From positions 2,481,001 to 2,545,000 of the forward strand of contig NZ_CP040676.1 in assembly GCF_005960665.1 (NCBI RefSeq): 64,000 nucleotides of DNA, in the 5' to 3' direction. How positions within the stretch are numbered: the stretch's first letter is position 1; every line of letters starts with the position of its first letter. The translations under genes and the position numbers were made by a program. Of this stretch, positions 33,032-38,498 are shown in pieces. This stretch comes from Exiguobacterium mexicanum (lineage in GTDB: Bacteria > Bacillota > Bacilli > Exiguobacteriales > Exiguobacteriaceae). The notes beneath the pieces are model-generated. The model did no database searches and had not been told where the DNA came from. It saw nothing but the letters and a program-made list of their open reading frames with translations.

Positions 33032-33658
33032 ATGAGTAAACGTCAACAAAACAAAGAAGAACGATTAAATCGCATCATCAGTCAGGCTGAAACCCTGTTT
33101 CTGAAAGACGGATTCGAGCGCGTCCAAATGCAGGATATCGCTGACGCCGCCGAAATCGGGGTCGCGACACTGTTTCGCTATTTCCCGAAAAAAGATCAGT
33201 TGATTGTCGCAGCGGCTGTCCGTAACTTGGCACCGACGCTCGACGCGTTCAAGGAATTGACGAGCCGGACGGGAGATGCGTACTCGCGACTCGAGGCGAT
33301 CATTGACTACTTGCTCGACCAACAAATGAAACGGACGAGTCACTCTCGCTTCCGTGAGGCGTTCGAGAGTTATGCCTCGTTCGTCGTAAGTCCCCTTCCC
33401 GGAATCGATAACTACATCGGACTACAGCGCGAGATCATGGAGACGCTCGAACCGCTCATTGAGCATGGGAAGACGGACGGCTCGCTTCGAGGCGACATCG
33501 ATGTGAAAACGACCGTCGTCACCATCATCAACGCGTTCGGGACGTTCGGCAACAATATCATTTTGAAGTCTCACATCAGTTATTTAGAGGACGATATCGA
33601 ACCGCACATCCAACAACGGGTGTTGCGAGAGATGCTCTTGTCGTATGTGCGCTCATAA
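33032..33658 (+). CDS. TetR/AcrR-family transcriptional regulator
   Basis: This 208-aa repressor has an N-terminal helix-turn-helix (IADAAEIGVATLFRYFPKKDQLI, about residues 32-54) preceded by LNRIISQAETLFLKDGF. A C-terminal ligand-binding helical domain follows. The start at 33032 has GAGGTG 5 nt upstream; a longer frame from 32963 has no such site and would run through the promoter. It is divergent from the SDR gene with a 23-bp palindrome in between, so it probably represses both and is released by an SDR-related small molecule. Confidence 0.88.
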   Translation: MSKRQQNKEERLNRIISQAETLFLKDGFERVQMQDIADAAEIGVATLFRYFPKKDQLIVAAAVRNLAPTLDAFKELTSRTGDAYSRLEAIIDYLLDQQMKRTSHSRFREAFESYASFVVSPLPGIDNYIGLQREIMETLEPLIEHGKTDGSLRGDIDVKTTVVTIINAFGTFGNNIILKSHISYLEDDIEPHIQQRVLREMLLSYVRS

Positions 33659-33687
33659 CAAAAGCCCCTTCGCGTGAAGGGGCTTTA
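33658..33687. terminator. bidirectional terminator between tetR-type and VOC genes
   Basis: AAAGCCCCTTC and GAAGGGGCTTT pair around GCGT. The two genes converge here. Confidence 0.8.
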
Positions 33688-34065
33688 TTCGTGCAGTTCG
33701 AGCGGCAGACCGTCCGGGTCGAAGAAGAACGTCATCTTCTCGCCCGTGAACGTGTCATACCGAATCGGTTCCGTCGTGACACCGTGCGTATTCAGTTCGG
33801 CGACGACCGCCTCGATATCGTCGACTTTAAAGGCGAGATGACGGAGCCCACACGCCTCCGGGAAGCTCGGCCGTTTCGGGCTATCCGGTTTGATGAACAG
33901 CTCGAGCTCGTACGCGCCGAGCCGCAGGTCGATCTTGTGGTCGCCTTTGTCCAGACGATGATGCTCGCGGATGACGTCGAAACCGAGGATATCGATGTAG
34001 AACCGTTTCGCCTCGTCATAATTTGAGGCGATAAGCGCCACGTGATGGATGGTATGTAGTTGCAT
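33685..34065 (-). CDS. VOC-family (glyoxalase/dioxygenase fold) protein
   Basis: This 126-aa protein consists of one vicinal-oxygen-chelate unit: two beta-alpha-beta-beta-beta modules, with His in IHHVALIASNYDEAKRFY and in LRHLAFKVDDIEA, and a Glu near the end (FDPDGLPLELHE). These are the usual metal ligands, so it may act as a lyase, isomerase or thiol transferase; it resembles the YwkD/glyoxalase I-like group. The start at 34065 is chosen because GGGGG lies 6 nt upstream. A terminator-like hairpin stands only 18 nt before the start, so expression probably depends on read-through. Confidence 0.8.
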   Translation of the reverse strand: MQLHTIHHVALIASNYDEAKRFYIDILGFDVIREHHRLDKGDHKIDLRLGAYELELFIKPDSPKRPSFPEACGLRHLAFKVDDIEAVVAELNTHGVTTEPIRYDTFTGEKMTFFFDPDGLPLELHE

Positions 34066-34082
34066 CATAATCCCCCATATAC

Positions 34083-34200
34083 AAAAAAATGAGCACCTCT
34101 CACTAGAGGTGCTCTCGAAAAGTCTACCGCGTCGAACCACGCTCCACAACGTGCTCCCGAAGGAATGTCCGCCGTCTTACATAGACCAGCTCATCGCATG
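34083..34200 (-). ncRNA. candidate structured leader or small RNA with intrinsic terminator
   Basis: A good minus-strand promoter (34207-34235) should start an RNA near 34200. The RNA can form a closing stem GTCTA/TAGAC around two hairpins (TTCC-TTCG-GGAG and GCGT/ACGC). It ends with a perfect 10-bp terminator, GAGCACCTCT/AGAGGTGCTC, plus seven T. The VOC ribosome site follows at once. It could be an attenuating riboswitch-like leader or an independent small RNA. It does not match a known class that I can recall. Confidence 0.5.
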
Positions 34201-34206
34201 TACTCA

Positions 34207-34235
34207 ACTATAGGCGAATCCGAGCCCCGCGTCAA
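34207..34235 (-). promoter_or_regulatory. promoter of the VOC leader RNA
   Basis: TTGACG, a 17-nt spacer and TATAGT on the minus strand: a near-consensus sigma-A promoter, divergent from that of htpG. Confidence 0.7.
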
Positions 34236-34253
34236 TCTTTTGTTTGTACCGGG

Positions 34254-34281
34254 TTGACATCTTCCTAAAAATTAGGATAAT
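34254..34281 (+). promoter_or_regulatory. sigma-A promoter of htpG
   Basis: A perfect TTGACA, a 16-nt spacer and GATAAT; the CIRCE element follows directly. Confidence 0.75.
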
Positions 34282-34289
34282 CAATAGTG

Positions 34290-34316
34290 TTAGCACTCTT
34301 ATATCTAGAGTGCCAA
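34290..34316 (+). promoter_or_regulatory. CIRCE element (HrcA operator)
   Basis: TTAGCACTC-N9-GAGTGCCAA matches the CIRCE consensus TTAGCACTC-N9-GAGTGCTAA with one change. It lies at the transcription start of htpG. Confidence 0.9.
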
Positions 34317-34344
34317 AAATGAAAAAACAAAAAGGAGAACGATC

Positions 34345-36213
34345 ATGACAAAGAAACAGTTTCAAGCCGAATCGAAACGAATTTTAGAGTTGATGGTCCA
34401 CTCAATCTATACGCATAAGGACATCTTCCTCCGTGAGCTCATCTCGAACGCGAGTGACGCCATCGACAAGATGTATTACCGGGCCTTGTCAGATGAGGCA
34501 ATCGACTTCAACAAGGACGACTACTTCATTAAAGTCGAGCTCGACAAAGACGCCCGCACGATCACCATCCGCGACACCGGAATCGGGATGACGGCCGAAG
34601 AGCTCGAGTCGAACCTCGGGATTATCGCCAAGAGCGGTTCGCTCGCGATGAAGCAGGCGACGAAGATGGAAGAAGACCACAGCCTCATCGGCCAATTCGG
34701 TGTCGGCTTCTACTCGGCGTTCATGGTGGCAGACCGTGTGACGGTCCGCACCCGCTCGGTCGACAGTGAACAAGGCTACTTGTGGGAGTCGGAAGGCACA
34801 GACGGTTACACGATCGAGCCGACAGATAAGACCGACATCGGGACTGAGATCACGTTGCACGTGAAAGCTGACACGGACGACGAGACGTACTCATCGTTCC
34901 TCGAAGAGTACGAGATTCGTTCACTCATCAAGAAGCATTCGGACTTCATCCGCTATCCGATTAAGCTCGACGTGACGAAGCACCGTCAAAAAGAAGACTC
35001 GGACGAGTACGAGGATTACGTCGAAGAAGAGACGCTCAACAGCATGGTGCCGATTTGGCGCAAACGGAAGAGCGAGCTCTCGGAGGAGGACTACAAGGCG
35101 TTCTATCACGAGAAACGCTACGGCTTCGATGAGCCGCTCAAACACCTTCACTTGAACGTCGACGGCTCGATCCGGTACCAGTCGATTCTCTACATCCCAT
35201 CGACGGTCCCGTTCGACTATTACACGAAAGAGTTCGAGAAAGGGCTCGAGCTGTACTCGAACGGTGTCTTGATCATGGAGAAGTCGCCTGACCTGCTCCC
35301 GGACTATTTCGGTTTCGTCAAAGGGATGGTCGACTCGGAAGACCTGTCGCTCAACATTTCCCGGGAGATGCTGCAGCAGGACCGCCAACTTCGCGTCATC
35401 GCCAAAAACGTGAAGTCGAAAATCAAAGGCATGCTCGAGAAGATGCTCCAAAACGAGCGCGAAGACTACGAGAAGTTCTTCGAGTCGTTCGGCCGTCAGC
35501 TCAAGTTCGGCGTCTACGATCAGTTCGGTGCCGCCAAGGACGAGTTGAAAGACTTGCTCTTGTTCCACTCGTCGAACGAGAACAAGCTCGTCACGCTTAA
35601 AGAATACGTCGAGCGCATGAAAGACGATCAAAAGTACATCTATTACGCGACGGGTGAATCGATTCACCGCATCGACCTTCTCCCTCAGGCGGAACGCTTG
35701 AAAGAAGAAGGGTTCGAGATTCTCTACTTCACCGAAGAAATCGACGAGTTCGCCATCAAGATGCTCCAGTCGTATGACGACAAAGAGTTCAAGTCGATCG
35801 CGAGCGGTGACCTCGGGCTCGATGACGAGGCGGCCCATTCCCTCAACGAGGACAACAAGGACTTGTTCGCCTTCATGAAACAAGAACTGGGCGACCGCGT
35901 CAAAGAAGTGCGCGCCTCGACACGTCTCAAGTCACATCCGGTCTGCTTGACGGTCGCCGGCGACGTCTCAATCGAGATGGAGAAGATTTTGAACACGATG
36001 CCGAATGGCGGCGGCATGAAAGCCGAAAAAGTGCTTGAAGTGAACGCCGATCACGCCATCTTCCGGACGTTACAGCGCATCTATAAGGAAGATGAAGCGA
36101 AAGCGAAACAGTATACCGATTTGCTCTATCAGCAAGCACTCCTCATCGAAGGGCTACCGATTGAAGATCCAGTGGCGTATTCGAATGCGGTGTGTGCGTT
36201 GATGGCAGAATAA
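34345..36213 (+). CDS. htpG: molecular chaperone HtpG (bacterial Hsp90)
   Basis: The 622-aa chaperone has the GHKL ATPase N-domain with [12 protein letters not shown] (ATP/Mg contact Asn), DTGIGM and [14 protein letters not shown] middle domain follows with the catalytic-loop segment [15 protein letters not shown], and then a C-terminal dimerisation domain. Length is typical. It refolds client proteins in the cytoplasm. The ribosome site AAGGAG is 7 nt before the ATG. A sigma-A promoter and a CIRCE element lie upstream, so HrcA should control it; in Bacillus subtilis htpG is not in the HrcA class. A strong terminator follows. Confidence 0.97.
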
Positions 36214-36978: not shown

Positions 36979-37061
36979 AGAAAAGAAAAAGGACTTGCCA
37001 GCAACCATAATCTCACCCTAACGTTTAAGTTGCGACACAAGAACGTTAGGAGATGGAAGGA

Positions 37062-38498
37062 ATGCTAGCAATGTCCGATATCAATTGTATCAAATATCTG
37101 AGAAACCACAAATCACATTCGATCAATCGAATCGCTAAAAATCTAGACCTCAACTGGAGGACGGTAAAAAAATACGCGGATTCAGCTCAACTGCCGAGTG
37201 AAACCATTCGCCCCAAGAGAGGCATGATGTACGGAACGAAATGGGGCGAGATGGTCGAGGATTGGTTGACCGAGGATCAAATGCTTCAGAAAAAGTTAAG
37301 ACGAACGAATAAAAAGCTTTATGAAACGCTGGTGGCGAACGGATTCGAGGGTTCTTACCGGACGGTCTGCAATTTCATCAAGAGCTGGCATATGACGAGC
37401 GAGGAGGAAAACGACACAAGGCAAGAACGATTGCAACACCCTCCGGGTGAGGCACAGGTAGATTTCGGGACGATGGAAGTCGTCAAAGATAGTCATGCGG
37501 TCGATGTAAAATGCCTCGTCATGAGCCTGCCCTTCAGTAACCGCACAGCAGCTGTCGCCCTGCCCGCAGAAAACCAAGAGTGCTTTTTGACGGGACTCAA
37601 AATGCTTTTTGAAGAAATCGGTGGTGTACCGCAACAGCTCAGAATCGATAATCTCCCCGCCGCAGTCATCCAACCACGAACGACAAAAGAAGAGGCGATC
37701 TATACAGATGCTTTCCTGCAGTTCATGGCACATTACGGCTTCCAAGTTCAAAGCTGTAATCCTTACAGAGGTAACGAGAAAGGAAGTGTCGAGAACAAGG
37801 TAGGATACGTTCGGTACAATTTTCTTGTCCCAGCCCCTGTCATGCATGATTACGATTCGACGAACCGGCAACTCGCAGCTTCCCTACGGGATGACATGGA
37901 GAGAGTGCATTACGAAAAGCATGTGCTGATCCGTGAGTTGTTCGAAGAAGAGCAGAGACATCTATTGCGATTGCCGCAAGAAGACTTCCCCGTCTTCAAA
38001 GAAGAACTGTTCAAGGTGAACAAGTACGGCGAAATAACGATCGATAAGACGAAAGTCTTGATCCCTTCAGGGGCTCGTCATGGGCAAGTACGCGCCATCT
38101 TAAGGTGGGATTCGATGAAGATTCTCTCACTTCACGGAGAAATCCTCTACGAAGAAAAACGTCCCTACATGATGACAAAGCGTGCGCTCCCATGGGAAAA
38201 CATCATCAGCACTTGGCACAAGAAGCCGAGAAGCTTCGGGCACTCCCGTTATTCCGAATATCTGCCGGGTAGAATCAAAGAGTACCTGGGCGTACCCAAC
38301 TTACTCGTTCGGCAGGAAAGACTGGCCTGGATCCGAGCCAAGCTCGCACTCTATCCAATCCTCGAGATCAATGAACGCCTATACGAGCTACTGAGCGAGG
38401 ACGACGATCCAGCCGTGGTTGAGGACCATCCTTATGATGTGGATTGGAGCAAGTACGATAGCCTGAATCGGCCTTGGGGAGAAGGTGGTGCAGTATGA
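37062..38498 (+). CDS. istA: IS21-family transposase IstA
   Basis: The 478-aa DDE transposase has an N-terminal helix-turn-helix (INRIAKNLDLNWRTVKKY) and a catalytic core with Asp in GEAQVDFGTMEV, Asp in QLRIDNLPAAV and Glu in KGSVENKVGYVR. A C-terminal DNA-binding domain follows. In-frame ATGs lie at 37053, 37062 and 37071; 37062 has GGAG 9 nt upstream. Its stop overlaps the istB start (ATGA), the usual IS21 coupling. The gene looks intact, so the element is probably active. Confidence 0.9.
   Translation: MLAMSDINCIKYLRNHKSHSINRIAKNLDLNWRTVKKYADSAQLPSETIRPKRGMMYGTKWGEMVEDWLTEDQMLQKKLRRTNKKLYETLVANGFEGSYRTVCNFIKSWHMTSEEENDTRQERLQHPPGEAQVDFGTMEVVKDSHAVDVKCLVMSLPFSNRTAAVALPAENQECFLTGLKMLFEEIGGVPQQLRIDNLPAAVIQPRTTKEEAIYTDAFLQFMAHYGFQVQSCNPYRGNEKGSVENKVGYVRYNFLVPAPVMHDYDSTNRQLAASLRDDMERVHYEKHVLIRELFEEEQRHLLRLPQEDFPVFKEELFKVNKYGEITIDKTKVLIPSGARHGQVRAILRWDSMKILSLHGEILYEEKRPYMMTKRALPWENIISTWHKKPRSFGHSRYSEYLPGRIKEYLGVPNLLVRQERLAWIRAKLALYPILEINERLYELLSEDDDPAVVEDHPYDVDWSKYDSLNRPWGEGGAV

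What the first reader, a model, noticed from the sequence alone, without database searches (positions are those of the whole stretch)
34083..34235. Structured leader or small RNA with a terminator before a VOC gene
A near-consensus promoter, about 80 nt that can fold into a closed multi-hairpin unit, and a perfect terminator 18 nt before the VOC start together look like a ligand-controlled attenuator or an sRNA. It matches no riboswitch class I can recall (not T-box, S-box, ykkC, ZTP, fluoride, or THF).
Basis: partly seen in the sequence, partly recalled or inferred. Interest (0 to 1): 0.6.

Follow-up and report, generated by a model that had tools for sequence, protein, structure and literature searches.

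The report
BsrF small RNA beside htpG
The segment is an Exiguobacterium copy of BsrF, a small regulatory RNA already known from Bacillus; it is a free-standing RNA gene and not a new riboswitch for the neighbouring gene, and its job could not be settled here.

Summary
On the minus strand lie a promoter (34235-34207), a structured RNA (34197-34083) and a strong terminator (34114-34083). It is an sRNA, not a leader for VOC: BsrF is in 19 of 19 genomes of the genus, but VOC follows it in only 12 of 19. In 106 distinct loci not of Exiguobacterium type, the next ORF is convergent in 59; it lies on the same strand within 100 nt in 18, none a VOC homologue. Pairing is conserved: 16 of 22 pairs change on both sides, covariation score 0.513 against 0.221 +/- 0.012 in shuffles. 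The second genus of the family lacks it, 0 of 19. BsrF is described as CodY-activated in B. subtilis (passage); my CodY-box scan could not test this. The mRNA-target search gave only mid-gene sites among the 12 of 59 hits read. Mechanism is inferred. Ordinary as a find; low interest.

The parts
34207..34235 (-). bsrF promoter: -35 TTGACG (34235-34230), 17-nt spacer, -10 TATAGT (34212-34207)
   Evidence: matching promoter in 19 of 19 genomes of the genus
34083..34199 (-). BsrF small RNA gene, about 115-117 nt; the first conserved base is G34197, the exact start is inferred from the -10 box
   Evidence: Rfam RF01411 over 34197-34091, 57.8 bits, cut-off 50; T run read
34187..34197 (-). Conserved 5' tail GCGAUGAGCU-G, outside the consensus helices
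   Evidence: first 9 bases invariant, tenth at least 90%, in 41 distinct sequences; GCGAU is unpaired and GAG is paired in the minimum-energy fold, and the whole tail is unpaired in the centroid
34122..34186 (-). Core: outer helix P1 (34186-34181 with 34127-34122), conserved internal loop UAAGA, helix P2 and two hairpins P3 and P4, with conserved UGUGG in the P4 loop
   Evidence: 16 of 22 pairs with change on both sides; columns
34083..34114 (-). Intrinsic terminator: 10-bp stem 34114-34091 and T run 34089-34083
   Evidence: terminator-like site in 112 of 123 distinct loci, 4 of 123 after one base shuffle each
33685..34068 (-). VOC/glyoxalase gene downstream of the terminator; a neighbour, not part of the element
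   Evidence: Pfam PF00903, E 3.3e-23; behind BsrF in 12 of 19 genomes
34345..36213 (+). Divergent htpG (Hsp90); neighbour in 19 of 19 genomes of the genus
   Evidence: Pfam PF00183, E 1.4e-114; tblastn
34254..34281 (+). htpG promoter TTGACA-N16-GATAAT, back to back with the bsrF promoter (18 bp between the two -35 boxes)
34290..34316 (+). CIRCE-like operator of htpG
   Evidence: 1 mismatch to the perfect CIRCE in 19 of 19 genomes of the genus

Best explanation
It is the Exiguobacterium bsrF gene. A sigma-A type promoter makes a short RNA of about 115 nt that folds into a closed core with two hairpins and ends at its own terminator (anatomy shown by sequence and covariation; transcription inferred). 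The RNA most likely works in trans. The invariant 5' tail and internal-loop bases are its contact surface, probably for base-pairing with mRNAs (my odds about 0.6), possibly for a protein or ligand (inferred). By analogy with B. [quoted passage not shown] The VOC gene is a local neighbour that may live on read-through from the bsrF promoter in the genomes that have it (inferred). The confidence below is for identity as a free-standing BsrF sRNA.
For: Rfam RF01411 above cut-off over the full model, 1-113. One copy in each of 19 of 19 genomes of the genus. In the class sample 54 of 398 genomes and 17 of 145 genera, 53 of them over the cut-off and 19 of the 54 being this genus (stricter filters); the B. 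subtilis control rings. Covariation. Matching promoter in 19 of 19 genomes of the genus and a terminator in 112 of 123 distinct loci. RNA kept where VOC is absent; other neighbours elsewhere. B. subtilis BsrF is described as CodY-activated (PMC3574147, passage; PMC4634765, passage, which merges it with SR1). CodY is encoded in the window's genome.
Against: No expression data here. No CodY box stands out: best matches in the genus have 3-5 mismatches, and only 4 of 19 beat shuffles at p below 0.05. The scan also finds only 4-5 mismatches in six Bacillus loci used as a yardstick, so it cannot decide. The complements of the 5' tail that I read (12 of 59 non-self hits) are all mid-CDS, which does not favour simple antisense at start codons. 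The 11 of 123 loci without a terminator call were not examined further. Five of the 106 loci share one same-strand neighbour family within 100 nt and three share another, so single lineages do have constant neighbours.
Confidence: 0.93

Rival explanations
1. A ligand-controlled transcription attenuator (riboswitch) of the VOC gene.
For: Promoter, structured RNA, terminator and the VOC start lie in a row; VOC follows in 12 of 19 genomes of the genus.
Against: 7 of 19 genomes of the genus keep the RNA without VOC behind it. None of 35 loci outside the genus has a VOC or HtpG match by tblastn within 1.5 kb. In 59 of 106 distinct loci not of Exiguobacterium type the next ORF is convergent, so it cannot be controlled in cis. 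Known sRNA family.
Confidence: 0.03
2. A structured trans-acting RNA that binds a protein or small molecule with its invariant loops, and not a base-pairing antisense RNA.
For: 25 invariant columns in 41 distinct sequences, many outside the helices: 5' tail, UAAG, UGUG. No start-site mRNA targets among the 12 sites read.
Against: The rows were found with a model that rewards those bases, which inflates invariance. An invariant seed is also what a base-pairing sRNA with conserved targets would show. My target search was narrow. SR2/BsrF has a row in a table of Hfq-associated RNAs of B. subtilis (PMC3574147, row seen without its column heads), which fits a base-pairing sRNA.
Confidence: 0.25
3. 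Chance fold with a terminator left over from another transcript.
For: Single-sequence folding is only mildly better than shuffles, z -1.88.
Against: Covariation score, 0 of 500 shuffles as high; Rfam E-value 5.5e-08 over the whole window.
Confidence: 0.005

Closest known systems
BsrF (SR2), Rfam RF01411, Bacillus subtilis
   Same: Full-length covariance match above the curated cut-off with the same order of elements (5' tail, closed core with two hairpins, terminator); promoter and terminator signals of its own.
   Different: Sits beside htpG; in B. subtilis it is listed between yobO and csaA (PMC3574147, table row). Inner P1 pairs differ: A-U where 34 of 41 have G-C, and G-G where 26 of 41 have G-C. 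CodY control not shown.
Riboswitch or attenuator leaders ending in a terminator before a gene
   Same: Structured RNA followed by an intrinsic terminator close to a start codon.
   Different: The RNA persists without that gene and before convergent or other genes.

Membership tests
BsrF (RF01411) | Covariance-model score at or above Rfam's gathering score over the full model | tested here: met
   57.8 bits, cut-off 50, model 1-113
BsrF (RF01411) | Conserved paired core | tested here: met
   91.7% of cells paired, 16 of 22 pairs with double changes, aligned with copies from other genera; the alignment was fitted to this structure, which leans the counts
BsrF (RF01411) | Independent gene with its own promoter and terminator | tested here: met
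   by sequence only
BsrF (RF01411) | Transcription activated by CodY (reported for B. subtilis) | tested here: inconclusive
   CodY present but also in 73 of 73 genomes searched, 19 of them without BsrF; box scan uninformative also in six Bacillus loci
BsrF (RF01411) | Expressed as a discrete RNA of about 115 nt | not testable with these tools
   no expression data
Riboswitch/attenuator of the VOC gene | Conserved association with the gene it controls | tested here: not met
   VOC behind the RNA in 12 of 19 genomes of the genus and 0 of 35 loci outside it
Riboswitch/attenuator of the VOC gene | Match to a known riboswitch class | tested here: not met
   only RF01411 reaches its cut-off in the window; no riboswitch among the four matches up to E 10 in 34000-34345
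Riboswitch/attenuator of the VOC gene | Ligand binding and an alternative antiterminator fold | not tested
   no alternative-fold analysis was made; binding cannot be tested here

The most novel reading that the evidence does not exclude
BsrF is a stand-alone receptor-like RNA: its invariant bases outside the helices (GCGAUGAGC tail, UAAG internal loop, UGUG of the P4 loop) form one binding site for a protein or metabolite, and it acts in trans as a decoy or sensor and not by antisense. In Exiguobacterium a VOC gene has settled behind its terminator as a read-through passenger.
Probability: 0.15. Interest if true: 0.5.

Novelty: new member of a known kind. Interest (0 to 1): 0.15.

Why it matters
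It settles a possible orphan riboswitch as a known sRNA and describes BsrF in Exiguobacterium. The RNA is in 19 of 19 genomes of one genus and 0 of 19 of its sister genus, and the bases kept across genera can be mutated to ask what BsrF does, for which the passages I saw name no clear target.

Tried and rejected
VOC leader: rejected by gene neighbourhoods.

CodY box: scan of 200 nt upstream in 54 loci with the 15-base consensus AATTTTCWGAAAATT (recalled), with shuffles, and of 250 nt in six Bacillus loci as a yardstick, without shuffles (record titles: B. inaquosorum, B. spizizenii, B. safensis, B. pumilus and two unnamed Bacillus). No clear site in either, so undecided. Most of the best genus matches, at about -76, overlap the htpG promoter spacer.

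mRNA targets of the 5' tail: the 10-mer complement in 19 genomes gives 245 hits, 19 of them expected to be bsrF itself, against 182 for the reversed pattern (my sums of the table). The 18-mer with up to 3 mismatches gives 78 hits, 19 of them bsrF, so 59 others against 18 control hits (my sums). I fetched 12 of the 59: seven are one gene (L115, L117-L122), two another (L116, L125), and L123, L124 and L126 are single. All 12 lie 318 or more nt inside their longest same-strand frame, and the repeated sites sit at the same place of one conserved protein, as coding conservation would give. The other 47 of 59 were not read, so the excess over the control is not fully explained.

Sister genus: searched with Rfam's model and my own model R1 at E up to 5: only chance-level hits in 2 of 19 genomes, best E 1.09. 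The htpG upstream regions of these 19 genomes were printed.

Alignment detours: one search aligned the genus loci in contig orientation, not RNA orientation, and was set aside. The RNAalifold run on the full-length alignment missed the outer helix, and the structure written for it was not used. I realigned the core and named the structure by hand.

Papers: the original CodY study (PMC2725614) is not held; what I know of it beyond the citing passages is recall. RF01411 is in no paper of the library. The word BsrF alone returns mostly unrelated physics and materials papers (listing); with Bacillus subtilis it gives 10 papers (listing).

Full report
What is there. On the minus strand between htpG and a VOC gene lie a promoter (TTGACG-N17-TATAGT, 34235-34207), an RNA-like stretch beginning GCGAUGAGCU at 34197, and a perfect 10-bp terminator stem with a T run (34114-34083). 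The VOC start codon is at 34068 (or 34065), 14 nt after the T run.

Identity. A scan of the whole window against Rfam 15 gives one match at gathering score: RF01411 BsrF, 34197-34091 minus, 57.8 bits (cut-off 50), E 5.5e-08, model positions 1-113 of 113. A local search of 34000-34345 up to E 10 lists four matches, none a riboswitch; the second, ctRNA_pGA1 (an antisense RNA), has 15.7 bits against a cut-off of 45.

Structure. The single sequence folds only mildly better than shuffles (z -1.88, 8 of 200 as good). I therefore took 54 copies: 19 from the genus and 35 from other genera of the class. From 43 of these I cut out the core, 41 of them distinct, aligned the 41, wrote the structure by hand, built model R1 and realigned all 54 copies, which again hold 41 distinct rows. 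Over 22 pairs, 91.7% of cells are paired, 16 pairs have a change on both sides (4 of 500 shuffles reach this), 157 cells have such changes (shuffles 44.0 +/- 6.2) and the covariation score is 0.513 (shuffles 0.221 +/- 0.012, 0 of 500 as high); slid controls score 0.093 or less. The alignment was fitted to this structure and the copies were found with a related model, which leans the counts; the margin is large all the same. Against the structure, of 41 rows 18 break the outermost pair of P1, 15 the innermost (among them the seven distinct Exiguobacterium rows, G-G) and 14 the next one.

Invariant bases outside helices. Twenty-five columns are identical in all 41 distinct cores, among them bases 1-9, UAAG of the internal loop and UGUG of the P4 loop. 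Ascertainment by a model that rewards these bases inflates this.

Free-standing gene, not a leader. In the genus, htpG is divergent in 19 of 19 genomes, while VOC lies behind the terminator in 12 of 19. In the other 7 the RNA, terminator and promoter remain. Pooling the 54 and the 80 and removing 11 loci with identical RNA and near flanks leaves 123, of which 17 are of the Exiguobacterium type. In the other 106, the first downstream ORF is convergent in 59 (42 within 100 nt), on the same strand within 100 nt in 18, farther off on the same strand in 26, and none is in the stretch held in 3. By BLASTP the 18 fall into groups of 5, 3, 2 and 2 plus 6 single ones, and phmmer finds no VOC homologue among them. 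ORF calls there are mechanical (70 codons or more), so single cases may be wrong. A terminator-like site follows the core in 112 of 123 loci, against 4 of 123 after one base shuffle each. One paper used the B. subtilis bsrF terminator as a heterologous terminator in constructs (PMC5848175, passages).

Distribution. Genus 19 of 19. The second genus of the family 0 of 19 with Rfam's model, and with R1 only chance-level hits in 2 of 19. Class sample 54 of 398 genomes (53 over the cut-off) and 17 of 145 genera, with stricter filters that lose weak matches. None in viral contigs by exact pattern. In the second genus htpG has its CIRCE (19 of 19 with at most 1 mismatch) without BsrF beside it. Whether this is loss there or gain beside htpG here I cannot tell.

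Regulation and function. PMC3574147 states that B. [quoted passage not shown] it also has a table row SR2/BsrF among Hfq-associated RNAs (passages). PMC4634765 says that SR1, also called BsrF, is activated by CodY and represses translation of AhrC (passage); PMC3574147 lists BsrF and SR1 apart, so I take this as a mix-up of names, from recall and not tested. PMC2784878 lists bsrF among known RNAs detected by tiling arrays (passage). CodY is encoded in the window's genome, but also in all 73 genomes searched, 19 of them without BsrF, so its presence says nothing. The CodY-box scan gave no clear site here or in six Bacillus yardstick loci. The complement of the 5' tail recurs in the genus above a reversed-pattern control, 59 against 18 hits by my sum, but the 12 of 59 that I read are deep inside coding regions. 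The mechanism is therefore inferred: a trans-acting RNA, most likely base-pairing, with protein or ligand binding as the main rival.

The VOC gene. The consensus scan found no other minus-strand promoter in 33400-35500. With 14 nt between T run and start codon, VOC in this genome may depend on read-through of the bsrF terminator. This is what remains of the attenuator idea and is an inference.

Literature on the genus. PMC10837837 counts predicted sRNAs in Exiguobacterium, but BsrF and riboswitch do not occur in its main text (passages). A search for Exiguobacterium with small RNA and sRNA held 5 papers (listing); RF01411 occurs in none of the library. I could not see Rfam's own species list, so Exiguobacterium copies may already be in it.

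Verdict. Real, well conserved and already a named family: low interest as a discovery, with a modest open question about what BsrF does.

Noticed in passing
34290-34316 (+), upstream of htpG 34345-36213: A CIRCE-like HrcA operator precedes htpG. It has 1 mismatch in 19 of 19 genomes of the genus; in the second genus it is perfect in 18 of 19 and has 1 mismatch in the other. From recall, B. subtilis htpG is not under HrcA, so the regulon seems to differ here; of my paper search I saw only the listing.
   Followed up: partly
34263-34277 (+): A perfect palindrome TCCTAAAAATTAGGA lies in the spacer of the htpG promoter and runs into its -10 box: exact in 14 of 19 genomes of the genus, 1 mismatch in 4, 3 mismatches in 1, and 3 or more mismatches in the 19 of the second genus. 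In the window shuffles 8 of 100 hold a match with up to 1 mismatch. It could be a second operator for htpG; no regulator is assigned.
   Followed up: partly
L002, L004, L005, L007-L010, downstream of bsrF: The VOC gene is missing behind bsrF in 7 of 19 genomes while bsrF stays; in 4 of the 7 (L005, L007, L008, L010) the same TetR and SDR genes follow directly, so VOC has been lost or inserted just behind the terminator.
   Followed up: partly
37053-38498 (+): A 481-aa ORF that by eye resembles an IS21-type transposase lies downstream of htpG (sequence; name from recall, no search made).
   Followed up: no
L142 (JAGGQZ010000026.1): A record titled Chryseobacterium sp. ISL-80 carries the BsrF pattern; the other 79 listed titles are, as far as I know the names, Bacillus-like genera or unnamed Bacilli, so the title is probably a misnaming.
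   Followed up: no
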